Positions 7,545-61,849 of a DNA stretch of 64,000 nt are shown in pieces. Numbering within the stretch: position 1 is the first letter of the stretch; each line of letters starts with the position of its first letter. Made by a program: the position numbers and the translations under genes. The notes beneath the pieces were generated by a model. That model ran no database searches. It saw nothing but the letters and a program-made list of their open reading frames with translations, and was not told the DNA's origin. This DNA comes from Hawksworthiomyces lignivorus (taxonomy: Eukaryota > Ascomycota > Sordariomycetes > Ophiostomatales > Ophiostomataceae): assembly GCA_002917075.1 (NCBI GenBank), contig NTMA01000014.1, positions 1 through 64,000 of the forward strand. Reading direction: 5' to 3'.

Positions 7545-10500
7545 TCACGCACTGTCGTCCATCTCGAGAAGTCCGGAATCTTCACCAGCTTCCACATCGC
7601 CGTCCTCTCCCGAAGACAGAACTTCTTGAGACGCCGGCGACGGGTTGTCATCTGAGTGGTGGGGGTTCGCGCGACGCGAGATCATCTCCTCCGAGGACGA
7701 CGCTAGAATGCTCTCGTCTTCGTCGTCCATTTCTTCCGAGTCCAGCAAGTCGTCTTCGTCTTCCGACTCTGTGCTCGGGCTGAAGGGCGGATAAAACATG
7801 GCCGGCGGGGGCAGCTCAACAGGATCGCGCCGCTCGACGCGAATCGAGGCGTAGTCGACGACGATGACGGCTGCTTTGGACTTGTTCAAGTTGGCGACCG
7901 CTGCCGAAATCGGGCCGGACTGCTGTTTCAGTGCGGCGAGGCGCTTCATGAGGGACGACATCGAAAACACACCGCCACCGGGGTTGTCGTTTGCATTGTC
8001 GTCGCCCTCGTCTTCATCTGCATCCAGGCCGCCGTTCACGCGGAATGGGCGTTTGGTCGTCACATGCACGGCGAAGTGGTCATCGGGATAGACCCGGTTG
8101 ATGCCAGATGCCTCGAGAAACGGCTCGATGAACTTCGCCGGCAAGGCCGTCGTCTGAGTCGGGCCGTCGCCAAGCACCAGGATGTCGTCGTCCAGCTCTT
8201 CGTCCACACTTCCGGTGCTCCGATAGCTAGCTGAGCTACTCATGTTGTCTATGCTCACAGAGGACCGAGCAGGTTCGGCACGTCCGACCGTGCCAATTCC
8301 AAGCAGGCCGAGAGCAGACCATTCGTCTCTTGACAGCGTCAGGTAGTCGGTTAGAGGCCGGAAAGGGATGAACGAGCCGGACGAGGAGCGGTGGATGGTT
8401 GGCCTGCCTTGAAGTGCATCATCCACAGACTCCTGCATCTGGCCTGTCGATGTCATGTATGTCGTGGGGCTCCCATCTCCCCCGCTGTCGCCCGCCAGAT
8501 CGGTGCAAAACGGCATGCCGCTATAATACACTAAGACGCCGTCTCCCTTGAGCCTGTTGTGCTTGGCTGACGACGTAGACCGGCTCAGGTCGTATTGAGA
8601 CATGTCGATGTTGCTGTTGCTGTTGCTATTGCTCTTGCTCCGGTTGCTGTTGTTATTGCCTTTGAATGCGCCAGAAGGTCCACCTTCTACCGGGCTCGAA
8701 TCCTGCGACATTAGATCGTCTTCAGATTTAGTCGCCTGAGGTGAAGTGCGGTGGACAAAAAGCGGCTTGTACTGAAAACTGGACGAGGCGCCCGACTCCT
8801 GCGGTCCGAACTTGGAGTTCTTTTTGCTGCTGGACAGCGCAGATGCCGAACCGTCGGCCAGTGTCTTTGTCCGCTTGCGCCGGCCGTTTTCATCAGACCC
8901 GTCGCCTTCATCTGTGGACGGGCTGAGCTGTGACTGATCTTCTGTGCTGCCATCACTGCTAAACTTGGTCCCGTCAACACCGCCCCGCCAGCGAATCTTC
9001 TGGCCGTCTGGGGACAGCTGGAATTTGGTGCTCTTTTCCACGATCGCTTGGCGAATAAAATCACTGGACACGTTGAAGATGTGCAGCTGGGCCAGGTTTG
9101 ATAGAAGATTTAGATATACCCAGCCATGGGCATCGGGAGAAACGTCATTGACTGTGACAGTGCTCTGTGGGCCAATTTCGGGAGGAACCAGGCCGAGGTG
9201 CCGGATGTACTCCATATTCTCGGCAGGAACTTGAACTCTGTCTGGATCAAGATCGAGCGGTCGAGTCGGGCGCTGCTCAAGCAGAGCGACACCAGCAGGC
9301 GACTTCCCGGGTCCGCTGCCATGGCCGTTTCCGCCATTGTTGACTCCATTTCCAAGCCCGCTCCCGTTACCGGATTCGTCGCCATTAGAGTTTGAATTGG
9401 TCGAAACGTTGTCGCGCGAACCACCTTTTCTGTGGCTGTTGTGCCTGGCCTGAATGCGAGCTTCGCGCGCTGGTTCTGCACTTGACGGCGCTTGGAGGGA
9501 AATATTGGCACCTACCAGAAAAGCAGGGACAACAGCGGCAGCGGCAGCGTTAGCCAGAGCCTCATTCGTACCGCCACTTCCGCTGCCGCTGCCAGCCCTT
9601 CTAACAGACTTATCATCGGAGCCGGACACAGCATCTGCCACTGCGCTCCTGGCTGCTGCTGGAAGGGCCGCCTTTCTCTGACGGCCGTAGCGACCGCTGA
9701 TCTTACCAGTAAAAATCTGCTCCAGCCGCCGAACGATGAGCTTCTTCTTGTCATTGTCGCCCAGCGCTCGGATGCCGTAGTTGGGGTGTAGGCCCTCTGG
9801 GATGTCCTGGAGGTAGCGCTCGACTTTCTGCTCGGAAGTGCGGGCTCTTGCACCGCTTCCAAAGGAGGGACGGACAAGCGACGCGCCAGATGAATGCGCA
9901 CCAGTTGACATAGAGGCGTAAGCTGAGTCGACTGGGCGCGATCGCGAAGACGAATTCGACGTTTGTTTGGAGCGCGAGCCACCGGAAGAATGGGGCTCCT
10001 GCCCGTGGTGATGGTGATGGTGGTGGTGATGAATATGAGAGGAGACATTTTTGGACGACGCGGACTTGTCGCGCTTACGCTGAGAAGCCGATTCGCTCGA
10101 TGCGGTGTCACCAAGACTGGCGGCAAAGTCTCGCAGTGTCGCTTCCAGCTCCTGTTTCTTTCGGCGTGGCAAGCCGTGGACTCGGATTTCGAAGAGCTTC
10201 TCTTTTTCGAGGAGATCGCGGCTGACATTCTGCTTGTAGCGCTTCAGCTCCTCTTTTAACCGTTTGTTCTCGATAGTCAAGTCGTCGATGACGCTACGGA
10301 AGTCGTCTGCGCTACTGCTTCGAGCTGTGTCACGGCGGATAAGACCCGGCGGGAAGAACGGGCCACCTGGAGGGGCAAACGGGGCGGTGCTTCGCGGAGA
10401 CGTCACGGGCAGATCGGCGACAACATCGTCGCTTGAAGAATCACGCTTCTGAAAGAAGGGTAGGTCGACTAAAAATATGGAAGAACAGAAAACCATGTCA

Positions 10501-10945
10501 GCCTCTGTAATAGCTATCGTAGATGATCCTGCTGATTGTAGCTTAGAAGGGCCTCTACGATGCCCATGCCTCAAGTGCACTGTCGAAGGGAAAGAGGGTC
10601 ACACGAATACCTACCGTCCATGAGATTACTATCAAGGGTGGTTGTCGGATGCCGATTGGCATCGTCAAACCACTTCTTCGCATCAGTCATCTCGGACGCG
10701 TGGCTGCCGCGAGATGCATCGCTGCTCTGGTCTGGCCGCAGTAGGCCCTGCTGCGGCTGCTGTTCTAGGGATATGTCATAAGATACATTTTTGGCGGCTG
10801 TTACCAAGCCTGCATCTCTAGATGAACCGTGAGAGCGGCGTCGGCGCCCTCCTAGTGGAGGTTCGTCGGAAGGGGTAACGGCTATCCGCCGCGGATGGGA
10901 TTCTGGTGGTGGCCGGTCGGTCGGAAGGCGCCTGGCGTCGGCCAT
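7545..10945 (-). CDS. frq: Frequency clock protein FRQ
   Basis: Core negative element of the fungal circadian oscillator; known FRQ dimerises, binds FRH and CK1 and represses the White Collar complex. Exon 1 is 10945-10615 and exon 2 10468-7545 (146-bp intron), giving 1084 residues; Neurospora FRQ is about 989. Hallmarks: NLMDVDLPFF across the splice, coiled coil SVIDDLTIENKRLKEELKRY (about 169-188), KLFEIRVHGLPRRKKQELEA then TLRDFAASLG (to about 230), ERYLQDIPEGLHPNYGI, KKKLIVRRLEQIFTGKISGR, ENMEYIRHLGL, VSPDAHGWVYLNLLSNLAQL, IRWRGGVDGTKFSSD, VYYSGMPFCTDLAGD and an acidic C-terminus. Odd points: a run of about ten His near residue 260 and long Ser/Asn/Gly-rich linkers. The start ATG gives the MADA N-terminus and has no competing upstream in-frame ATG in the exon. 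Confidence 0.95.
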
Positions 10946-29951: not shown

Positions 29952-32900
29952 TTAGCTCCACTCTTCTACACAAGATGCAGACAATAAAGTATTTGGGTGT
30001 TCCGGGCCAAGGACTCGTCGACGAGCCTGAACACAGTCTTTCATCAATGCTAAGGCTTCCACACAACGACCTTGATCCATCCAAGTAAAAGCGAGGTTAT
30101 TCATGCTCATCAACGTATTGGGATGATCTACCCCGAGCTTGGTCTTACGAGTCTCCAACACCTGCACGTCCAACTTCTCGGCCTCGTCCCATCGTCCTTG
30201 ACTCCAAAATGTCGACGCAAGGCTGGCCATGCTCGTCAACGTATCGGGATGATCTACCCCGAGCTTGGTCTTACGAGTCTCTAACACCTGCACCTCCAAC
30301 TTCTCGGCCTCGTCCCATCGTCCTTGATATCTGTACGTCGCCGCAAGGCTGGCCATGCTCGTCAGCGTATCGGGATGATCTACCCCGAGCTTGGTCTTAC
30401 GAGTCTCCAACACCTGCACGTCCAACTTCTCGGCCTCGTCCCATCGTCCTTGACGTCTGTACGTCGACGCAAGGCTGGCCATGCTCGTGAGCGTATTTGG
30501 ATGGTCTACCCCGAACTTGGTCTTACGAGCCTCCATTACCTGCACCTCCAACGTTTCGGCCTCGTCCCATCGTCCTTGACTCCAAAATGTCGACGCAAGG
30601 CTGGCCATGCTCGTCAGCGTATTTGGATGGTCTACCCCGAGCTTCGTCTTACGAGTTTCCATCACCTTCAGTTGTAACTTCTCGGCCTCCTCCCACCGGC
30701 CTTCATCATAATACAACCTGCCAAGAGTTTCTCCTATGAAACACTCATTGTTTTCAATGTGCTTTGCTCCATCCTCATAATTCTCACCAATTCCCTGAAG
30801 GTGGACAACTAGATATCGACGGAATTCCGGCAATGGTTCCTTTGTCATCTGACAGCACGCCGCCAGAACAACCACCATATACCACCACTGCCACAGTTGA
30901 CTCGCGCTGCTCTGCGTCACCCGCCATTGAACCATGCTGTGCATTGTTACTCCAGGCCATCTCCCCTCCACACGCTGCAACAAGCTGTGTCGAATGAGGA
31001 CGCCGCAAGCTTGCCGATACTGAAAGTCATCCCATTCGTCTTCATGAAGGGGGAAATATTGCCGGAGCCCAGTTGGTATCCCATCGCTTGCTTCGCCCTG
31101 AATTTCGGCGTCGACCACTGCCATTCCAAGACTTGCCAGACGGAACAGCTCGTCCTGGATAATAGTGCCTTTGAAATACGCGAGACATGTCAGTAGTATA
31201 TCCAGCTGCAGGTCTGCATTCTCCTCCGTGATTTTCTTTACTGTAGTGTCCCACACCGTCCATACCGTCTTCTCTGTTGGCAGCAGTCCTTTGAAATGAT
31301 CCATCTTAAGGAGCTCGTCACGGTGTCCATCATAATCTGCGATATACTGCAACAGAGCCTGGTCTGGTGCAGAATTATTACCAATATACGCGCCAGCAAG
31401 TTCAAGAGCAAGCGCCAGATATCCAAGCTTCTCTGCCACCTCGTCACAGGCGCGCCGGATGTGCTCGGATGCCGACTCTGCATCAAGCTGTAGATGCCGT
31501 AGAAGAAGAGCCGCTCCTTCGGACGGCGTCATGGTGCCAACTGGAACCTCTTCGCAAGCTCTGGAGAGCAGCATTACGCTCTGCTTATCTCGGCTGGTAA
31601 CAATGATACTACCCCGCTCACCGCTAGGCATTATCTTTTTGATTCCCCAACTGAGATCGTCAGCGTTGTCGACTATCACCAGCCAATCGTGGTTCGCTTC
31701 CGTTCTGTCGTGAAGCCATCGGAGGACCGCTGTGACTGCTACGTCTTCGAAAACTGACGTTTGTTTCTCGGTACGCTCATCTGGGAACCCAAGCTCCGCA
31801 GCACATTTTTGGAAGCTGGATCGCACGGCCTCTTCGTCTGTCGCATCGATCCAAAGAATAGGGTTGTACCGGTCTTTGTGCTTCTCGGCGTAGTCTAGCG
31901 CCAGCTGGGACTTGCCGGCACCGCCGAGTCCGTGAAGAGCAACCGCAAATGGAACGCTAGCTCTCTCGTGTCGTATTCGCAGCTTCTGCTCCAGTTCTTC
32001 CGAGAGCTCCACGCGCTGGGTATACGTATATACTCTCCTGAGCGGGACTACGTAGTGGCGCTTCACAGATCGGGCTGAATATGTCGGTATTCAGTAAACT
32101 ATCTTGACAACTAGAATTTCGCGCACGTCTGCTCCCTCCGGTTGGTGACCAGAACTAAGCAGGCCGTGACATAAGAGATTTAAAGAGAAGTTAGAGACTG
32201 ACCATTCTCGTCGAAAGCCTGACTGCTTTCGTCTGAAGGCAGAAGCATCTCTGCACATTTTCCCACTTCTTCTCCAACCCCGGCCATCTTCAAGTAGTTG
32301 ACCGTGAGTGCCCGCATCTTCTCAGTTTCCTGCCAGTCATCCAGCTGCAGATCTTGCATGCCCTGAGGCACGTTGAAACGGAAATATCGGTTCACACTTC
32401 TGAGGCGTTTTCCTTCACTGCTATTAGCGAATTGCTCGGCAATGTCCTCCGAGTCTGTCATCATCTGAATGGCGCCGCCGAGGAACCCCAACAAGTTCGA
32501 CGAAACCTTTCTAATATGCGGGACTCCGGTTCCTATACTGACAACACAGCCAATCTCTCTGTCTCTAAAGCTGCTGTTCTGAAGTCGGCCAACCTCTTCC
32601 ATGGCTACGTGTATGGGATTGTTCCGCTTCAATCCTCCGTCAACCCACTTCTCCTTTCTCTTCTCGAACTCCACGGACTTGAAGTACATCGGCGCTGCAG
32701 CAGTTGCGCTTGTAGCTTCCCATATCCGGCACTCGTAGTTCTCTTCGGTGGGGACGTTTGTAATGTAATTTCGGAGGACATCTGGCTTGGAGATACTCTT
32801 TCGAGTGACACAAAGCATGCTATAGGGCAGACATTAGCAATGAAGCAAGTCTGTGGGGATGAAAAACTGACACTTTACATCCAGGGTCTTCCGCTTCGCA

Positions 32901-33314
32901 AAACGGCTCATCCGGCGGTATAGCGGGTACGCTCATACCAAGAGCGTCTTTAATACACTCTTGCAAGGTCGCTATGTTGTATAGAGGGCGGCCCACAAAC
33001 CCTTTCGCAACGAGCCCCGCTTTCCCACCAGTTGGCTTTCCAAACACCTTCTTCCCCACCGTTTCGTACTGCTCTATCGCCTCATCAATGGTCATGCGGA
33101 GCCGTCCGAGCATCACAGCTATCAGACCGCCAGTCGAGGTTCCGATTATGAGGTCGAAGACGTCGCATGGCCTGGGCTGCTCCACGAGCTTGTTGCCGGC
33201 TTTGTCCTTTAAGGTGCGGAAGATGCGCTGGAGAATGAGCAAGGACGTGTAGCCTTTGATTCCTCCTCCATCAAGAACCAGGATTCTGAGAGGTTGAGTG
33301 GAGGCCGCCGACAT
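29952..33314 (-). CDS. NOD-like receptor: patatin-like phospholipase / NB-ARC / TPR
   Basis: Three-part fungal NLR, 1060 residues, exons 33314-32872, 32819-32203, 32074-29952. The N-terminal patatin effector has LVLDGGGIKGYTSLL (oxyanion loop, about 13-27), nucleophile elbow GTSTGG (Ser about 60) and catalytic Asp in WVDGGLKRNNP (about 208), so it should be a competent acyl hydrolase. The NB-ARC NTPase has P-loop GLGGAGKS (402-409), Walker B DWLVIVDNADD, SIIVTSRD, and YLALALELAGAYI. The C-terminus has about six 42-residue TPR units of the NLR type (GRWDEAE...HPNTLTSMASLA). Donor AAAGT|gtcagt is chosen because only it gives in-phase KVMLCVTRK. Such proteins trigger regulated cell death or allorecognition in other fungi; a role here is inference. 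All key residues are intact. Confidence 0.93.
30090..30700 (-). repeat. 126-bp tandem repeats encoding TPR units
   Basis: The landmark CTACCCCGAGCTTGGTCTTA (one variant has GAAC) begins at 30128, 30254, 30380, 30506 and 30632, exactly 126 bp apart. Each unit is 42 codons, in frame in the NLR gene. Units are near-identical in DNA, with differences concentrated at a few codons (for example FWS, YRR, YRY, FWS before QGRWDEAE; Glu/Asp after KL; Met/Leu and Thr/Ala in the V(M/L)E(T/A)RKTK segment). Outer units at both ends are more diverged. This is the pattern of concerted evolution by unequal exchange seen in fungal NLR repeat domains. Confidence 0.95.
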
Positions 33315-34147: not shown

Positions 34148-36271
34148 TTATGTATTCAGCCAAGATAGGTCTCTCCGCACACTATAGCCTAAGCTTATAC
34201 ATGATGCATTGTTCGGGCCATCCCATAAATAAGCCGTCTGTGGAATCCGCAAGCACAATGGATCCTGCCGCTTGTCGTATGCCATAGCTCCGTCTGGCGG
34301 TTCCTGTACCGAAAGCTGATCCCATAGCTCCAAGCGGCCCGGCCCGAGCACTTCCTTAACGCTCTTTATGTCTTCGGACACGTCGCCCGGGTATGTGTTG
34401 ATGCGTCTGCTATATGGTGTCGGTTCGATCGTGTCTCCGGCGTCGCTGTCCCAGTCTTCAAAAAACTGCTCGGGCGGCTCCATGAGGTCGGGGAGTGCCT
34501 CCACATACAAGATATCGCCGGTGTGGCGCGTGAGCTTCCAGACCTCGCTGCGGTATGCGCCGCGCGCACCCGGCTCTGCCCGCCAGACGTAGAGCTTGCC
34601 CGCGGGGTCCTCATTGTAGAAGCGGCCCCAGGTCCAGTAGACCTGCTGCGTCCAGGCAGCATCGCTGTCGTCCGATGCCATGGAGGCGGCATCTGAGGAA
34701 TCACTAGAAGCTCTGTCGTGGTTGGCGCCTGCTTTCCACCTGTCCGGTTGAGAACTGCGGCCGGCTGCTTCGTCATCGTCTAGGCCGTCAGGCATGCATC
34801 TGCGGAATAAAATCATGTCCTGCGCGTGCCCCCACCTGTGCTGGCACGTTGAGAAGAAGGGGCTTCCGTTGCTTTCGATCTGGCGAGCAAATTCACTGTG
34901 ATATACGACAAACTCGTCCTTCACGATCTTTTTGCGTTCTGTCGAGGAGGTTTTCTCTTTCTCTTTCCTGCTCGTCTCTTCTACTTTATTCGTTATCGGA
35001 GTGGCCACAAAATCCAGCGGATTTGTATCCGTTTCTTTATTGACAAAAGCCAGCAAAGCCTTCTCGTGAACAAGCGGAGTATTGATTCCGGAATCAGCTC
35101 CTTTCTTCTCTACGCGTAGCGTACTGAGCTGGAGGCCATCAATAGCGGCCATCCCTGCAATGGCGGAGGCACGGATGAAGCAAGATCTCAAGACGAGATG
35201 GCGCAGTGTTCTCGCGTGTGTCTTCACGAATGACAGCAGATGCGCCTCTTTTGCCGGAAAGCCTTCGAGGACGATCGTCGTGAGCTGCTTCCAGCACCAC
35301 GTCGTCTCCATGGTCTGGAAGTCGAGAAGGAAGAGCTCGGAAAAGTCGTATGTCTTGTTGTAGATGTGGTCGTGGCGCAGTAGGTGAAGCTCGTGGAGAC
35401 CTGTGGCCGACCGCAGGCAGTCGGCTAGATTTCGCCCAGGCAGCATGTGCGGCACCGAAGCTGAGCCGAAGTGCATACTGATGTGGGCAAGGTGGCTGAA
35501 CGCGGACGCGGGCATAGAGTGGGGCGCATCGATCTTGGTGACCAGCAGACCCTCGTCTACCAGGCTCAGGCTGCCGACGCGGCTGCCCAGACGGATAAGA
35601 GCGGGCAGGATGAACTCGAAGAAGCCGGCGTTCTGGGGGCCGGCATCGCTGGCAAACGCCCGTAGGAGATGGACAGTCAGCGGGCACGTGTTGTCTTCTT
35701 GGCAGGCACCCAGGCAGAGTCGCTTCTCAGACGGCATCGGCCGGCACATGAGCAAGCGGAGGCACGGCAGACGGTCGAGCGCCGAGAAGAATGCCTGCCG
35801 GAAGCCGAGGGCGGCAGGCGGCAGCGTTTGGTCGCTATTCTTTGGCGGCAGCGACAGCCAGAAGAGGTTCGGGTCTTGGAGCACGGCCTGAAGGTGCGTG
35901 TGAAAGGGCTCAAGGTTGTGCGTCATGACGACCCGCCGCTCGTCGTCGTCGTATGCACGCCCAGCCTCGCTGTCCAGAAAGCGTTCAAGAAATGCCTGGA
36001 GATTGGTCTCGGCGAGCTCATGCCACACCACCTCGCGCACGTGGCAGGCCAGATGGGGGCTGTCGCAAATGGCCAGAAAGGTGTCGCGGTCGCGCGTCAG
36101 CCGTGACACGGAGACCTGCTGGAAGAGCAGGGATGCGCAGACCCCGTCAAAGGTACGGCAGACGCTCCGCAGCGACATCAAATCCGGCCGCCCGACATAG
36201 CCGAAGATTCGGAATAAGATCTCCTTCGGGAGGAGTTCGACCGGCTGGTGTCCTTGTTCTTCTGTAGCCAT
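34148..36271 (-). CDS. F-box domain protein
   Basis: Single exon, 707 residues from the ATG at 36271 (three upstream codons in frame begin with TTG and are not used). F-box at about residues 11-50: VELLPKEILFRIFGYVGRPD then LMSLRSVCRTFDGVCASLLF, the usual Skp1-binding pattern. The middle contains leucine-rich segments (HLAHISMHFGSA, LHELHLLRHDH, LRHLVLRSCFI) as in fungal F-box/LRR-like proteins. A Lys/Glu- and Asp/Ser-rich linker precedes a C-terminal region with GRFYNEDPAGKLYVWRAEPG and acidic stretches. Expected role: SCF ubiquitin-ligase substrate adaptor; substrate unknown. It lies between the NLR and HET genes, and F-box genes commonly expand in the same accessory regions. The second F-box gene nearby (28.5 kb) is dead, this one intact. 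Confidence 0.8.
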   Translation of the reverse strand: MATEEQGHQPVELLPKEILFRIFGYVGRPDLMSLRSVCRTFDGVCASLLFQQVSVSRLTRDRDTFLAICDSPHLACHVREVVWHELAETNLQAFLERFLDSEAGRAYDDDERRVVMTHNLEPFHTHLQAVLQDPNLFWLSLPPKNSDQTLPPAALGFRQAFFSALDRLPCLRLLMCRPMPSEKRLCLGACQEDNTCPLTVHLLRAFASDAGPQNAGFFEFILPALIRLGSRVGSLSLVDEGLLVTKIDAPHSMPASAFSHLAHISMHFGSASVPHMLPGRNLADCLRSATGLHELHLLRHDHIYNKTYDFSELFLLDFQTMETTWCWKQLTTIVLEGFPAKEAHLLSFVKTHARTLRHLVLRSCFIRASAIAGMAAIDGLQLSTLRVEKKGADSGINTPLVHEKALLAFVNKETDTNPLDFVATPITNKVEETSRKEKEKTSSTERKKIVKDEFVVYHSEFARQIESNGSPFFSTCQHRWGHAQDMILFRRCMPDGLDDDEAAGRSSQPDRWKAGANHDRASSDSSDAASMASDDSDAAWTQQVYWTWGRFYNEDPAGKLYVWRAEPGARGAYRSEVWKLTRHTGDILYVEALPDLMEPPEQFFEDWDSDAGDTIEPTPYSRRINTYPGDVSEDIKSVKEVLGPGRLELWDQLSVQEPPDGAMAYDKRQDPLCLRIPQTAYLWDGPNNASCISLGYSVRRDLSWLNT

Positions 36272-36588
36272 TTCGAACAATAGAGTGAATTCCTACTTGT
36301 ACACCCACGATGTCATATCTGTCCATTAATTTTCACCACCTTCTAGTAGTAAAAGTGCAAATATATGTACATTATTGGGTTGCAATATTTATTAGCATTT
36401 AGATAAAATGAGTAACGGGTTAGAAGTTGAAATGGAAGACAATTCCTGATATTTGATAGACTCTTTTTCCTACCTACTAAAAGGCGGTGAAAATCGGTGT
36501 GCAAATAGGAAATCATAGTTGTACAAACAGGCAGCATAGTTCATTTTGCTGAGACTTGGCTACTGCATCAAAGGAAAAACTGTTTGGT
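36272..36588. other. intergenic, AT-rich
   Basis: Short AT-rich spacer: promoter of the F-box gene and 3' end of the HET gene. Nothing else seen. Confidence 0.6.
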
Positions 36589-39292
36589 CTACACAATGCA
36601 AACTTCTACTTCTGGAGAACCTTCGAGCCAAGTAATGAGATGTTCAGTCGACGTCGTGTCCGCCCGTCCTTTGCTTGAATCAAATGGTTCATTTGGCCCG
36701 TATGAAACGCTCACTGCCGAGCCAACACGCCTAAATTTCTGCCGCGGCACGCCTGCCGCAGATGACGCAGAAGCTGACGCTGGCGGTGGTGTCGAGTCCT
36801 CTAGCGGCACCAGTGCCAAGCAGCGCATCAAGTATCCGTCATAGATGAGGGGCATACACCAGACGTGCGACTCGGTGAACGGCACGGTGGTGTCGTCCGC
36901 CTCGAGGTTGGCAAGCTCTCTGCGGGAGGCATCCGGAATATGGCCGATTGCCCCGTTGCCGACAGCGGCTGTGGCGTCCTCTCCTTGGGGGGACCCATCT
37001 GGGACGAGCGTCAGGACGACGTCTCGGTTTCCCACTCGCATAGACTGCAACAATGCCCGTCTGCCAAGGTGGCGGAGCACAACGCGCGCGCGCCGCATGT
37101 GGCCGCGAAGGGTGATCTCCCCGGCAGCGACCTCGCCAAGCATGTTAGCGGCGTGCCTCGGGGTTGTCCAACAGTCGAGGATGGCGCACTCAATGGAGCG
37201 CGCCCGCGCAACTAGGCCGCTCTCGTGTTCGTTGCTGAGGGGTATGGAATTGCTGTCGATGGCCAGTGTGCGCACGAGCTCGTTCGTGCTGGCCCACGAC
37301 CAGGACGGGACCCGATATGCCGCCGCTGCAGCCGCCGGCAGAGACGCTAGAGGACGCTTTGTGGCAATGCTGCCGTGGGAGGTGTTTGCGGCCGTGTCCG
37401 CCGTCAAGCGACCCACCTCTAGAGCACTGCCATAGACCAGCCAGGCCAGGCCGCGGCGGAGATCCGTCAGCCAGAGCCCGGCGCGGTATACGCTCGCTGG
37501 ATCGGTCTGTGCCAGGGCGCGCGCAAACTCGGCCGCCATGCCGGCCAGGGCAGGCAGCTTATCCTTGTCAAATGTGAGTTTCCGGCTCGTGAATTCGCGC
37601 ACCACGTTTTGCCAGTTCTCGTGGATCTTGACGATCTGCCGGCTGCTGTCGTTCCCGCTCTTCTTGCCGTCCAGTTTGTGCATGTGGCAGCCCACGATGT
37701 CCGGCGGATCATTGGGCAAGCCGGCGGAGGGACCCAGGGCCGGGTCGAAATCGTCGGGCTCGTAGGCTTCGCTGTACGCCTGGCCCTCTGGAAGACACTC
37801 GCAGGCCAGCAGCGACGCGCATGTCCAGCGCACCTCGTTGGCGTCAAACGACAGCGCCCGGCTGGACAAGATCCATTCCTGCAGCGTCCAGCCGCGCACG
37901 TGCAGAGGCGTCTTGATGGGATATAGCTTGCGCATCATGTCCAGCGGGCGCGTCACTTTGGGCATGCGAAAGACTTCCCAGTGCACCAGCCGCCTCTGCA
38001 GGTAGCAGCGGCCGGCCCGTCTGCCTTTGCCGCCCTGCTCGTCTTCCTTTTCTCTGTCTTCTTCCGCTGCGCCACGGCCGGACACATCGGCCGTGCTCTC
38101 GACCCATGGCGCCAGACCATCGAACATGGGTGCCCGGCAGGGTGCGGTCAGGCAGCCGTCGCGCGGACGGAAAAAGCCCTCGTCGTCGCCGCCGGCCGCG
38201 TCCGCAAAGAGCGTCAGCGCTGCCTCGCGGTAGTAGCGGCCCATCTGCGCGGCCTCGCGCTGCCACTCGTCGTCCGAGTCCTGCACGATGCACAAGCTGT
38301 CGATCCACAGGTAGCGGTGGCCCAGGTGCCGCGTGATGGCCACGGCGTTGCGGAACGTCTGCGGCATCGCGGCCAGCGGAACGCCCGCCTGGCGCGCCGC
38401 CAGCGTGCGCGTCTCGGTCGTGAGAGGGCGGCCTGAGCCCCAGCAGTGGCTCAGGCACACGTATTCGCCGCGCTCGCCCGCCTGCACCGTGTACAGGAAC
38501 GGATCCTCGTCGCCCGCGACGCTGACGGCGACATCCAGCACCCGCGTCGGGAGCAGCCGCGTCTGCGTCTGGCGGGCGAGGCGGCATGCTGCGTGCGTCG
38601 CATCGCAGGTCTGCAGCCACAGCCGCGCGCGGTATAGCGCCGCGAAGCTGCCCGTGTGCGTATCGGTAGCAAGGTCCTGGTCCTCTAGCAGCGTCTCTAC
38701 TCTCTCTGAATTTTTGGCTTTAGCTAGGTCCGCTTCTGGTCGCTGCGTTCTTCAGCGGTTCATCAACACAATGCTCACCTGGAAGACCAGACAGGAGACA
38801 GAGACTGACTGTCGACCGGCGGCAGTCTGCATCCACATCTGTCCAGTGCACGACAACCCTGATCCGGTTCCTCGGCTCGCCTTTTTGGGTGTTCCCGAGG
38901 ACTAGCTCTAAGAGCACCGGCGCCAAAACGTCTTCAAGGTCTAACACGGGTCGGATAGCCGGTTGAAATAAGCTAGCGATTGCTTGCTCCGTCTGTGGCT
39001 CGCTCTCTTCTTCGGCTAGCATCTCTTCCAGCAGATGATCGGCGTGTTCCCATTCGTCGTCCACATCTTGCTGTCCTTGGTTAAACTCCACAATTCCGGC
39101 CAAGATGATTGCACAGAGCCGGCAGCTGCCCTGGCCTGCCGAGAGCTCCAGCGCCTCTAACGAGGAATGGTGCGCGTAGAATACATGGGTTTCCACGCCA
39201 GAGTCTAGCCTTTGGTATTTTGGCCCATGGAATGGTACTCTGTAATTGATAGCTTGACAAGTTTGACACAGCTGAATTCCTGCTGCAGTCAT
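36589..39292 (-). CDS. HET (heterokaryon incompatibility) domain protein
   Basis: Two exons, 39292-38779 and 38705-36589 (73-bp intron), 876 residues. The N-terminus has CQTCQAINYRVP and GQGSCRLCAIIL, the paired CxxC pattern that precedes many HET domains. HET domain about 252-400: YVCLSHCWGSGRPLTTE, LAARQAGVPLAAMPQTFRNA, ITRHLGHRYLWIDSLCIVQD, WQREAAQMGRYYREAALTLF, then GFFRPRD. These are the three conserved HET blocks. The C-terminal half has GWTLQEWILSSRALSF and RVPSWSWAS, also standard. HET domains execute cell death upon non-self recognition, often with NLR or STAND partners; whether this one works with the NLR 3.3 kb away is inference. Both frames are intact and GC-rich. Confidence 0.93.
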
Positions 39293-58195: not shown

Positions 58196-59811
58196 TGTGT
58201 CAGGTGACTACACACGTGTAATACCCGTGCAACTGTTAAGAATAGTGCATGCACTGTGTTGTAGTGTATCAGACACTGTATTAGCCCTTAAGAGCCCTTC
58301 GTCGAAAATCCTCTGAGGAGAAGCGACTGAGATTAAGTCTTGTATTTTACAACCTTTATACGCTGTTAATAATATACTTCTCACCCTCCTATCTCTACCT
58401 AGAGTACAAGTCACTCCCTAATTGCAAGGCAGACTCTTGAGGATGCGGAAAAAAAACTTACTGAATTGAGCGAAACGCTCCTATTTTGAAGCCGCAAAAA
58501 AGGCTAGGGCTTGGAGATTGACTGGGAGGCACCCCCTCACAGAATCACTCGCACCGCAAAATCAATTCCTAGGTAGGTAGGAAAATGTCAGGACTGCCAC
58601 AGCACTGTAGGGGAGAAAATAGGCTGGATCGGTGCGAGCTCATGAGGAGGGTAGGATTGTTGGAGAGTGCATAGGCCTGTGGATATCAGCCAATCAGGCG
58701 AAAGGATTATTGGAGCCTGAGGCAACAACTCCCATATAGTTAAATAGTGAGGCATTTGTCTGTAGGCCAGATATTACGCTTAGTACTGTGCTGACAGGGT
58801 GTGTGGAGCGAGTAGCATATTTCGCTACAAACATATCACATACGGAGTAAAACATATTATTTTGCACCTGTGGACCACTTGTAAGGGTCGTAGCCAATTG
58901 TATTGTCCTGTGATAAAACTCACCGAAAATAATTAGCTGTTGGACGGTAGCCCCTGACAGAAAATTGGATCCTCGGTTGACAATCTGACCTATCGGGGAA
59001 CTTTCCACTGCTTGTGAGGAGCCTTGATGCAACATCAACGACAGGCAGTGCAATTTCGTCGTATCGTTGTACACAAAAGTCAAGAAAAATGGAAAGAAAT
59101 CGAGAAGAGATAAAGGCTGAGGTCAAACCAATGCGAGGAGGTGACTTTGGAAATAGTAGAGAATGGAGACGTCGTAGGTGATTAATTCATGGTTGTCCAG
59201 GAAGTGTTGCGCAATCGCAGAATGATTTTTTTATTACTGTAAATCATTTGGGCTACCGCCACGGTGACGCATCAAATTATGTATCATCCTCTAGGGCTCT
59301 TCTCCATATAAAGATCTAGAACTTCGCTTGTTGTCTTTGCAGCCTTGTCCCCGTCTCCTCCTCTTCCTTCGCCCTACATGACTGTGGGTTTTCATATCTC
59401 GCATTCTCAATTTTATTTTTTCTTTTGGTTTTGCTCCTCCCCTGCTTCTTCTTGTATTTGGTCTGCAGCATATTTCATCATACACCCCCCCAGGGTTCAT
59501 TGCTTTCAGGCCTTATCAACTCCAATTTCTCAAGCAAAAAAATCAGTCTGGCCCCCAAATTTGAAATTTACCATATGTTGAAATAGATTCGTGGACAATC
59601 AACGTCGGAACTTTTCTTGTATATCGCGTTCTTCTTTTTCTATCTTCAAGCTCTTTTTTTCTACTCCCCCCCTTCCCTCTTTCCTGTTCTTGATGATTCT
59701 TTCTTATTACCGTCTTTCTGTCGTCTTTCTCTAGTTGTCGTTATGTCTTGTCTCTTTATGTTCCAATTCAATCCTTCTTTCACTTCTACATAACCTCTAC
59801 ATAGCCTCTTC
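58196..59811. other. intergenic
   Basis: 1.6 kb between the transposase relic and the OrsD-like gene. A minus ORF at 58694-59083 (129 codons) resembles nothing known. The last 450 bp are CT-rich (59330-59810), as in a promoter/leader of the following gene. Confidence 0.55.
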
Positions 59812-61849
59812 ATGTCTCACCATTTCGAGCCGATTATTTACCAACACGCGCATGCTATGGAACAGACTTCGCTTGGAGACCTCAACTTGCGCCTTGATAA
59901 GGCTCTTAGATGCCTCTTCTGTACGACCTGTGATTACAAGTTCGCCATTGATGTTACAATCAATGCTTATAAACAACATCGGAAGGCGTTCCACGAAGAC
60001 GAACTCGGAGTTGACGTATTTTTAAAAGTCATCCGTCCCTTGAACCTCACTCGATTTCAAAAGAAAAAGGTTCCCTCGAGTATCTCCGCACCTAACAAAG
60101 CTCTGCCGGTCTATGAAGCCTATTCCTGCTCTGAGTGCAAACACTGGACAATTAAGAAGGACAAGATTAAAGACCACATACACACTATGGAGCCAGTACG
60201 CATGCAGAGTTTCATGCATCCAAAATACGCGCCTCAGAAAGCGGTTTGGATTACCTCTGATGACGGTACGCCGCTGCATGACGTTGAGCAGCCTGAAATT
60301 GGAAATGAGCCATACTTAAATAATGATGGGCCTATCGACTTCTCAGATGCAGCTGAGAATCTGTCTATTGATGCAGATAATGACAACATGCCAAGAGTTG
60401 AGCAAAGTCAGGTTCCACCAGCTTCGCAAGACACCCAGGCCGTCCAGAACCATTTGGACTCTCCAAGTATTCAGGTCAGACAGGATACGAGTGCTGACCA
60501 GGTCACATATTCCAACAATCAGGATACCCAGCGCATCGAACATGACCACAACGACTCAACCAAGGCTAATTTATCTCAAAATGCAGCTGGTACCAATCCG
60601 CGCAAGCATGTCGCCGATGACATTCGTCGGTTGCAATGTGGGGAGTTGAATAACGATGACATGAATGCGCTGCTCCAAAGAATCCAAAAGAAATACGGTG
60701 GCACAGTTCTTGTTGTCGAGCCATCATTTTTTCGAAGACTAAGTAGTACAGACGGTCTCGACAATATCTCGGCTTGGTCACCGCAGGTTGATTTTACCCA
60801 GTATGAGTACACCGTGTTTCCAGTTTTTAGAAGATCTGTCTGGTTTGCTATGATTGCTTGTAATTACGGCACATATGCCGTAGGCCTCGACCCCTTTGGC
60901 TTGGCTCACGACGGTTCCTCTTATAGGCTCGCAGAGTATTACAAAAAACTGAATCGAAGTCTCACCGTAGGTATTTGGATGCGCAGGCCAGTACCAAATG
61001 TGAGTAAAAACGACAGTGGTGTTGTTCTTTTGGGCCTCATAGAGCGATTTCTCCAGGACCCAGACACGGCCGTAAAGTCCATCTTGCTGCAGGATACCAA
61101 TTTTCCTCACGAGGTGGACATGGCGGCACTCCGGTCGAACATTGTGCATTACAGACATCCTGCGTTTGCCAATGCTTGTGAGTTTGCATCATCTCTTATT
61201 TCGGCATGTGGCATCATTCTAACTGTGTACATCAAGGCCACTACGCCGATGTGCTGAAGCAAATGAGCGAAGAGATTTCTGTCCGGTCGTTTTCCGAAAT
61301 AAAGGGTTTTGTTGAACGCATTACTGAATCTTTGAAACGTTATGAAGATATTTACGAGCTTCTTCAGAGTGCATATCCAGAGAAAAAGGACTTTGCAGAG
61401 GTTCTGCAGTTGGTCCCTCTGGATAGCCACCCTCCCTACGTTGCAAAGATATATATGGGGGAAATTATGCAGCTAGGGTAAGTGAAGCGTCCAGCAGATT
61501 TGCTAAAGCGATTTGATTTGAGTTATGGTTTTAATGCAATCCTATTCTCAGTATGGACTCTTCTACCTCCATGCCGTCTTCAAGCTGGTCCCTACCATCC
61601 GAGACGTCGAGTAGATTCATCTTGAGAGAAGGGGACAGCCCACAGAACATCGAGCCACCTGCTCTGCCAAACCAAACGACATTTACCGCTCCATGTCAAT
61701 TACCGTCAGAGATGGGCAGCTGCGACACTTGGGTCAATAGTAGCCCTACTTTTACAGCATCTGTCACGCCAGCAGTGCAAAACAGACAAGAGCAGGATAA
61801 CTGCATTTCAGCACCAGTCTCAAAACGCCGCCGCCTTGATTTGCCTTAA
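59812..61849 (+). CDS. OrsD-like zinc-finger protein with a Ulp1/C48-like region
   Basis: Exons 59812-61177, 61237-61477, 61552-61849 join in phase to 634 residues. N-terminus: C-x2-C-x2-C with distal His (LRCLFCTTCDYKFAIDV...YKQHRKAFH, C34/C37/C40, H56/H61) and a second finger YSCSECKHWTIKKDKIKDHI (C106/C109, H122/H124), as in the OrsD (DUF3505) family. A long Gln/Asp/Asn-rich linker follows (about 160-265). About 300-455: GTVLVVEPSFFRRLS, YEYTVFPVFRRSVWFAMIAC and YGTYAVGLDPFGLAHD resemble the Ulp1/C48 core, but the catalytic His-Trp is replaced by Val-Trp. The tail has a bipartite-like VSKRRRLDLP. Function unknown; a domesticated mobile-element gene is one option. A weak match for the protease part. 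Confidence 0.6.

What the first reader, a model, noticed from the sequence alone, without database searches (positions are those of the whole stretch)
29952..33314. Complete patatin / NB-ARC / TPR NOD-like receptor with near-identical TPR units
All three modules are intact: GGGIKG, GTSTGG and DGG in the phospholipase, P-loop GLGGAGKS and Walker B in the NTPase, and a C-terminal TPR array. At least five units of exactly 126 bp are almost identical in DNA, while a few codons vary. In known fungal NLRs this pattern marks a recognition surface remodelled by unequal crossing-over. It is the best candidate in the window for a rapidly evolving recognition system.
Basis: partly seen in the sequence, partly recalled or inferred. 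Interest (0 to 1): 0.78.

Follow-up and report, generated by a model that had tools for sequence, protein, structure and literature searches.

The report
Fungal immune receptor with swapped effector
This is an intact-looking fungal immune-type receptor gene (lipase head, ATPase switch, repeat tail) of a known kind; what is unusual is that its lipase head comes from one receptor family and its switch and tail from another, joined at an intron, which shows how such receptors can be rebuilt from parts.

Summary
The observation mostly holds. On the minus strand (33314 to 29952), three inferred exons give a 1060-residue patatin / NB-ARC / TPR protein with intact motifs. The tail has five 126-bp TPR units, 76-91% identical in DNA, so 'near-identical' is too strong; a sixth is divergent. 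Four of 35 other arrays in this genome are more homogeneous.

New here: the gene is a chimera. Of 127 NB-ARC relatives (300 bits or more), 76 have an N-terminus long enough to judge: 75 match a sesB-like lipase profile, one is another type, none is patatin. The 30 closest patatins carry a different NB-ARC (79 bits at most). Similarity switches between aa 344 and 354; codon 354 is the one split by intron 2.

Variation between units concentrates at TPR ligand-groove positions, here and in 18 of 18 other homogenised arrays. But pN/pS in this array is 0.37, so positive selection is not shown. Strain polymorphism and true repeat number cannot be tested here.

Verdict: new member of a known kind (PLP-1-like architecture) with a well-resolved effector swap.

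The parts
29952..33314 (-). whole gene, ATG at 33314, stop ending at 29952, 1060 aa after splicing (gene model inferred)
32872..33314 (-). exon 1: N-terminal part of patatin with GGGIKG and GTSTGG (Ser60)
32820..32871 (-). intron 1, 52 bp, GT..AG (inferred, no RNA data)
32203..32819 (-). exon 2: rest of patatin with DGG (Asp208); strong likeness to patatin relatives ends at aa 344
32075..32202 (-). intron 2, 128 bp, phase 1, splits codon 354; the joint between the two receptor families; the 401 bp around it (31950-32350) match only themselves in the genome
29952..32074 (-). exon 3: NB-ARC, following helical region and TPR tail, kin of sesB-like NLRs
31383..31997 (-). NB-ARC domain (PF00931, aa 380-584), P-loop GLGGAGKS at 31931-31908
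30576..30701 (-). TPR unit 1 (aa 812-853); private differences only in its first half
30450..30575 (-). TPR unit 2 (aa 854-895)
30324..30449 (-). TPR unit 3 (aa 896-937)
30198..30323 (-). TPR unit 4 (aa 938-979)
30072..30197 (-). TPR unit 5 (aa 980-1021); private differences only in its second half
29955..30071 (-). divergent C-terminal sixth TPR unit (aa 1022-1060)

Best explanation
The gene encodes a fungal NOD-like receptor made by exon-level domain exchange: a patatin phospholipase effector (exons 1-2) from one NLR family, placed before the NB-ARC and TPR tail (exon 3) of the sesB-like/NB-ARC/TPR family. SHOWN by sequence: intact motifs, two separate ancestries, the joint at intron 2, a TPR tail homogenised as a tandem array with variation at the ligand groove. 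INFERRED from known fungal NLRs (PLP-1 above all): the TPR groove senses a self or foreign protein, ATP-dependent oligomerisation through NB-ARC clusters the patatin domains, and these hydrolyse membrane lipid and kill the cell. INFERRED: the swap replaced one lipase type by another, keeping the chassis but changing the output enzyme.
For: Motifs and domains. NB-ARC side: 127 proteins at 300 bits or more; 76 have at least 150 aa before the NB-ARC, of which 75 match a sesB-like profile (10 of them are its seeds; one of the other 65 is weak, 17.5 bits), 1 other, 0 patatin. Own NB-ARC is 60-69% identical to the 22 best relatives and lies with 15 rows of that clade on one side of a fully supported branch, against 10 patatin NLRs (100/100). 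Patatin side: 58-61% identical to P0069, P0070, P0076, P0085; the 30 closest patatins (250 bits or more) match own NB-ARC with at most 79 bits, 10 of them not at all. Joint, with uncut alignments: share of relatives with own residue falls for 27 patatin relatives from 0.78 at D344 to 0.30 or less at 345-363, and rises for 30 sesB-type NLRs from 0.03 at N353 to 0.60 at A354; codon 354 is split by intron 2. In uncut BLAST, 60 of 76 such relatives start at own aa 347-361. Intron: donors of phase 1 read by eye within about ten residues of the same place in three patatin NLR genes of this genome (C114, C148, C188); the sesB-type paralog C108 reads on without an intron there. Exon 3 has no ATG before Walker B, against an independent gene. 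Groove: own 0.640 vs 0.151 elsewhere (70 of 100,000 random sets as high); 18 other arrays 0.519 vs 0.249 (7 of 100,000), groove above rest in 18 of 18. Fold: mean pLDDT 85.5, TPR blocks mostly 93-98; best PDB match the STAND-TPR protein 6mfv, then kinesin light chain TPRs.
Against: No RNA data for the splice at the joint; intron 2 is long (128 bp). Direction of the swap rests on parsimony: holding own NB-ARC together with the ten patatin-NLR rows was not rejected (AU p = 0.192), though on an unrooted tree this only asks whether own branches first among the sesB-type rows. 15 of the 76 uncut alignments start before aa 347 (as early as 210) and one at aa 500; I read the early ones as weak extension into unrelated sequence, since mean likeness upstream of 351 is 0.10-0.25. 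Nothing ties this gene to cell death directly. pN/pS 0.37 in the array. No patatin in this genome is closer than 36% over most of its length (C148, with stops), short pieces reach 52%, so no donor is seen. No SNARE-family (PF05739) match on contig C46.
Confidence: 0.76

Rival explanations
1. An ordinary vertically inherited PLP-1-type patatin NLR; the reader's reading without any swap.
For: Same three-part architecture as PLP-1 (PMC12881547 and PMC10197012, passages); patatin NLRs are 95% of NB-ARC type in Sordariales (PMC12258605 section 13).
Against: NB-ARC belongs to a set whose judged N-termini are sesB-like in 75 of 76 and patatin in 0 of 76; the closest patatins carry a different NB-ARC; likeness changes sides at the joint.
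Confidence: 0.1
2. Two neighbours wrongly joined in the gene model: a stand-alone patatin gene and an NB-ARC-TPR remnant lacking its own start.
For: Intron 2 is 128 bp against 52 for intron 1; exon 2 read through gives a stop after ENGQSLTSL.
Against: GT..AG sites in frame; phase-1 donors read by eye near the same place in three patatin NLR genes here; exon 3 is one open frame with all motifs but has no ATG before Walker B.
Confidence: 0.12
3. The swap is real, but the 126-bp array as seen (number and order of units) is an assembly product.
For: Short-read assemblies of such repeats were found unreliable in Podospora (PMC12222747, passages); 2 of 17 array places end 94 and 733 bp from a contig end (C97, C85; for a further one, C153, the contig length was not known). 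The sequencing method of this genome is unknown.
Against: This array lies 30.1 kb inside a 571-kb contig; its units differ at many sites and its edges diverge as in a natural array.
Confidence: 0.2
4. The gene is decaying or has no recognition role, and groove variation reflects relaxed constraint.
For: Groove codons in 18 other arrays run at about pN 0.31 / pS 0.33, near neutral (my arithmetic rows); other patatin genes here carry stops (C148, C188).
Against: This gene has no stop or frameshift in the model and keeps its motifs; codons outside the groove are more constrained; the same positions vary in 18 of 18 other arrays, though these arrays are related to each other.
Confidence: 0.1

Closest known systems
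PLP-1 of Neurospora crassa (patatin/NB-ARC/TPR NLR that senses SEC-9)
   Same: Order of domains; PLP-1's death response depends on its patatin activity and ATP-binding motif (PMC12881547, passage); here Ser60, Asp208 and the P-loop are intact.
   Different: NB-ARC here falls with sesB-type NLRs; no SNARE-family match on contig C46. No listed hit bears the name PLP-1 or Neurospora, so it was not aligned directly.
sesB-like/NB-ARC/TPR NLRs (for example Pa_2_10340 of Podospora anserina; P0016 and others here)
   Same: NB-ARC 60-69% identical to the best 22 relatives; TPR units up to 0.79 mean aa identity (P0016). Pa_2_10340 shows repeat number polymorphism and selected concave sites (PMC4986451, passages).
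   Different: Effector is patatin, not the sesB-like lipase. Pa_2_10340 itself was not aligned.
N-terminal swaps in fungal NLRs (Dyrka 2014, Table 2)
   Same: Related NOD with a different N-terminal domain (PMC4986451 section 12, read in full).
   Different: Table 2 lists pairs with 80-99% identical NODs and has no patatin case; here the NOD is at most 69% identical to any listed relative, so the swap may be older. That section gives no break point; here it is placed at an intron.
HET/NB-ARC/TPR NLRs of the same genome (C163, C85, C104, C140, C159)
   Same: Related TPR arrays; C85 (22/31) and C163 (20/30) share synonymous codons above chance; C104, C140 and C159 do so weakly or not after correction.
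   Different: HET domain at the N-terminus and a distant NB-ARC with codons at or near saturation.
Podospora anserina TPR-like repeats (PDB 4y6w, 4y6c)
   Same: Matched by sequence and fold to the TPR tail.
   Different: By their titles, a nearly identical repeat array alone, without patatin or NB-ARC.

Membership tests
PLP-1-type patatin NLR | patatin domain with GxSxG serine and DGG/DGA aspartate | tested here: met
   PF01734 83.8 bits vs 27.7; Ser60, Asp208
PLP-1-type patatin NLR | NB-ARC with P-loop followed by TPR | tested here: met
   PF00931 37.3 vs 23.5; TPR_10 261.7 bits, 6 stretches
PLP-1-type patatin NLR | NB-ARC of the same clade as other patatin NLRs | tested here: not met
   PLP-1 itself was not among the listed proteins
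PLP-1-type patatin NLR | linked SEC-9-type SNARE | tested here: inconclusive
   PF05739: 6 places in the genome, 0 on C46; a SNAP-25-type gene could be missed
PLP-1-type patatin NLR | oligomerises and causes cell death | not testable with these tools
   needs experiment
sesB-like/NB-ARC/TPR NLR | NB-ARC and TPR of that family | tested here: met
sesB-like/NB-ARC/TPR NLR | sesB-like N-terminal lipase | tested here: not met
   own aa 1-353 scores -3.0 bits with the sesB-like profile; it is patatin
NLR with highly internally conserved repeats (Dyrka 2014: over 85% identity over at least 100 aa) | internal identity above 85% over 100 aa | tested here: not met
   neighbouring units share 32, 34, 37 and 33 of 42 aa; my pairwise measure, not their program
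NLR with concerted, diversifying repeats | variation at the concave groove | tested here: met
   positions of PMC1261162
NLR with concerted, diversifying repeats | positive selection at these sites | tested here: inconclusive
   pN/pS 0.37 over the array; no site test on alleles
NLR with concerted, diversifying repeats | repeat number polymorphism between strains | not testable with these tools
   one genome only

The most novel reading that the evidence does not exclude
The phase-1 intron at the patatin/NB-ARC boundary is a recombination hinge: effector exons of fungal NLRs are exchanged as cassettes through introns there, while TPR arrays are exchanged separately between NLR classes (sesB-type and HET-type), so that head, switch and sensor of one receptor have separate histories and are traded like modules within one genome.
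Probability: 0.33. Interest if true: 0.62.

Novelty: new member of a known kind. Interest (0 to 1): 0.38.

Why it matters
Domain assortment in fungal NLRs is well described, mostly as tallies of architectures and tree conflicts. Here one gene shows the joint itself, placed within about ten residues at an intron, with one lipase effector in the place of another while the NB-ARC stays close to its kin. If the chimera works, it is a natural experiment suggesting that sesB-like and patatin effectors are interchangeable outputs of one NB-ARC-TPR chassis. The groove test on 19 arrays of one genome also adds a case of the sensor-surface pattern reported in Podospora.

Tried and rejected
Considered and dropped: (1) a linked SNARE guardee as in PLP-1/SEC-9: 6 PF05739 places, 0 on C46. 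(2) An AU test to reject own NB-ARC with patatin NLRs: p = 0.192, hardly informative on an unrooted tree; kept as a result against certainty of direction. (3) A larger quick tree: same split, but with long branches and weak deep forks. (4) Positive selection from one array: pN/pS 0.37. (5) TPR tail as a third, foreign module: sesB-type NLRs of other species have TPR units as close or closer (up to 0.79, P0016; median 0.62 over 98 proteins) than this genome's other arrays (C19 0.75, C85 0.69, C163 0.67), so co-inheritance with the NB-ARC is the simpler reading. Synonymous sharing with C85, C151, C97 and C163 stays above chance after correction for 35 arrays, so exchange between arrays is likely, but its direction is open; 19 of the 35 have p above 0.05. 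(6) A first joint estimate used queries cut at aa 353/354, which forces the edge; repeated with uncut queries. On the patatin side uncut BLAST runs on into the distant NB-ARC (query cut at aa 420; ends at 327-420 in 30 relatives), so the edge there rests on the per-residue counts. (7) A first paper search for TPR groove terms gave nothing. The groove positions were chosen from recall, after I had seen the variation, and only later confirmed in print.

Limits: protein searches scored only the 7994-7997 candidates sharing most words and listed the best 120 of 258, 318 and 432; counts are over the 264 listed proteins. In one search, 51 of 127 NB-ARC relatives with under 150 aa before the NB-ARC were set aside. 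One search used 30 sesB-type relatives (500 bits or more, at least 150 aa before the joint) and 27 patatin relatives (300 bits or more). Arrays with under 3 units, and units with indels, were dropped; one search also required 8 shared codons. The other arrays are related to each other, so 18 of 18 is not 18 independent trials. Species unknown; Sordariomycete origin is a guess from the relatives.

Full report
What is there. The window is part of a 571-kb contig (C46) of a 43.7-Mb genome held as G000; intron-bearing genes and relatives point to an ascomycete fungus (inference). On its minus strand, 33314 to 29952, three exons (443, 617 and 2123 bases including the stop) separated by introns of 52 and 128 bp encode 1060 residues without a stop. 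Introns are inferred from GT..AG sites and reading frame; there is no RNA evidence. Pfam gives Patatin (aa 12-221), NB-ARC (380-584) and TPR_10 in six stretches. Ser60 lies in GTSTGG, Asp208 in DGG, the P-loop at aa 402.

The repeats. Tandem Repeats Finder reports period 126, 4.8 copies, 89% matches. The five units share 96-115 of 126 bases and 30-37 of 42 residues pairwise; a sixth is divergent. Of 36 arrays with three or more in-register units in the genome, this one is fifth in mean DNA identity (0.844); C68, C107, C19 and C117 are higher. The array has the shape expected from exchange between repeats: unit 1 has nine private differences, all in its first half; unit 5 has ten, all in its second half; units 3 and 4 have one each, unit 2 has six. 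Units 1 and 4 share the codons for FWS, and units 2 and 3 start that stretch with the same codons for YR.

Where it varies. Taking L35 of the unit as TPR position 7 puts positions 2, 5, 9, 12 and 13 at unit positions 30, 33, 37, 40 and 41. A published analysis found 2, 5, 9, 12, 13, 33 and 34 the most variable and all on the concave face (PMC1261162, passages). Mean pairwise residue difference at these five is 0.640 against 0.151 elsewhere in this array, and 0.519 against 0.249 over 18 other homogenised arrays, higher in 18 of 18. In an AlphaFold model of exon 3 (mean pLDDT 85.5) they fall inside one helix of each of the five units (model helices 483-498, 525-540, 567-582, 609-624, 651-666). 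This supports a ligand groove. It does not show positive selection: pN/pS over the array is 0.37, and in the other arrays the groove codons come to about 0.95 by my arithmetic.

The chimera. Searching the halves apart gave two different sets of relatives. Over the 264 proteins listed by the three searches, 127 match aa 354-795 at 300 bits or more. Of these, 51 have under 150 aa before the NB-ARC; of the other 76, 75 match a profile of the sesB-like lipase built from 10 of them, one is of another type (P0172), none is patatin. One of the 75, P0152, is weak (17.5 bits). The 30 closest patatins (250 bits or more) match the NB-ARC part with at most 79 bits, 10 of them not at all; the best over all 136 patatin relatives is 126 bits (P0054), against 627 for P0014. 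Trees agree: own NB-ARC lies with 15 rows of the sesB-type clade on one side of a 100/100 branch, and own patatin lies in a set with 26 near patatins (98/97). An AU test could not exclude own NB-ARC branching first among the sesB-type rows (p = 0.192).

The joint. With uncut sequences, own residues are shared by most of 27 patatin relatives at several places up to D344 (0.78) and by 0.30 or fewer from 345 to 363; they are shared by 0.03 of 30 sesB-type NLRs at N353 and by 0.60 at A354, then 0.80-1.00 at K358, H360, Y361, V363 and P364. Codon 354 is split by intron 2. In uncut BLAST 60 of 76 relatives with a long N-terminus start at 347-361; 15 start earlier and one later. In three other patatin NLR genes of this genome (C114, C148, C188) the patatin frame ends at what reads as a phase-1 donor within about ten residues of this place, the phase of intron 2 here (by eye; two of the three carry stops). 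In C108, the only close NB-ARC paralog in the genome (55%, 493 bits; next 76 bits), the frame runs on without an intron there and three of four N-terminal pieces match the sesB profile. The 401 bp around the joint match only themselves in the genome, so an assembly misjoin at a repeat is unlikely. No patatin closer than 36% over most of its length is in the genome, so the donor is lost, diverged or foreign.

The tail's history. NB-ARC codons of this gene against C85, C163 and C151 look saturated (synonymous identity 0.31-0.34 against 0.30-0.32 expected), but their TPR codons do not (0.55-0.64 against 0.31-0.33). With one consensus unit per array, C85 (22/31), C151 (19/26), C97 (19/27) and C163 (20/30) remain above chance after correction for 35 arrays. 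Of the NLRs with related arrays, the five whose upstream frame I scanned (C163, C85, C104, C140, C159) all have a HET domain. So arrays seem to be shared between NLR classes, as reported for WD repeats and suggested for TPR (PMC4986451, passages). Against a wholly foreign tail: sesB-type relatives elsewhere can have even closer units (P0016, 0.79).

Mechanism. By analogy with PLP-1, whose death response needs the patatin domain and the ATP-binding motif and which interacts with itself (PMC12881547, passages; the original paper was not read), the TPR groove would bind a trigger, NB-ARC would oligomerise and the patatin would attack lipid. Every step after 'intact motifs' is inferred.

What is known. 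Patatin/NB-ARC NLRs are common (146 patatin NLRs, 95%, in Sordariales are of NB-ARC type; PMC12258605 section 13). N-terminal swaps are documented (PMC4986451 section 12), with no patatin case in Table 2. My paper searches (listings; passages or sections read in four of the listed papers) showed no report of a patatin-for-sesB swap at an intron; they cover only the held open library and no supplementary files. Hence: new member of a known kind, with an unusually clear joint.

Noticed in passing
window 36592-38751 (-): A HET-domain frame (PF06985, 92.4 bits) near the NLR, separated by an F-box-like frame (34151-36292, -): possibly a small group of allorecognition-type genes.
   Followed up: partly
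G000:C46:372143-373083 (L045, L046): Second related TPR array on the same contig, about 340 kb away, in a frame with a distant NB-ARC.
   Followed up: partly
G000:C85 (array 733 bp from end) and C97 (94 bp from end): Two related TPR arrays lie at contig ends, suggesting that assembly breaks at such arrays.
   Followed up: no
G000:C68:141571-143931, C117:26734-29385, C159:443315-445546: Arrays with stronger signs of recent homogenisation: C68 mean 0.952; C117 and C159 hold unit pairs identical over all 126 bases.
   Followed up: no
G000:C148:628799-630256 and C188:50868-52420: Patatin NLR genes with in-frame stops, pseudogene-like, though introns were not modelled.
   Followed up: partly
G000:C19:41161-43875 and C131:147339-149335: TPR arrays split over two open frames by a stop or a change of frame, possibly broken genes or introns.
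   Followed up: no
P0172 (protein from a source without a name): Same NB-ARC set with PF01048 (PNP_UDP) listed among its domains and a non-sesB, non-patatin N-terminus: a further effector type on this chassis.
   Followed up: no
window 7548-10598 (-) and 59794-61254 (+): Frequency clock protein FRQ (813 bits), and an OrsD match below its cut-off.
   Followed up: no
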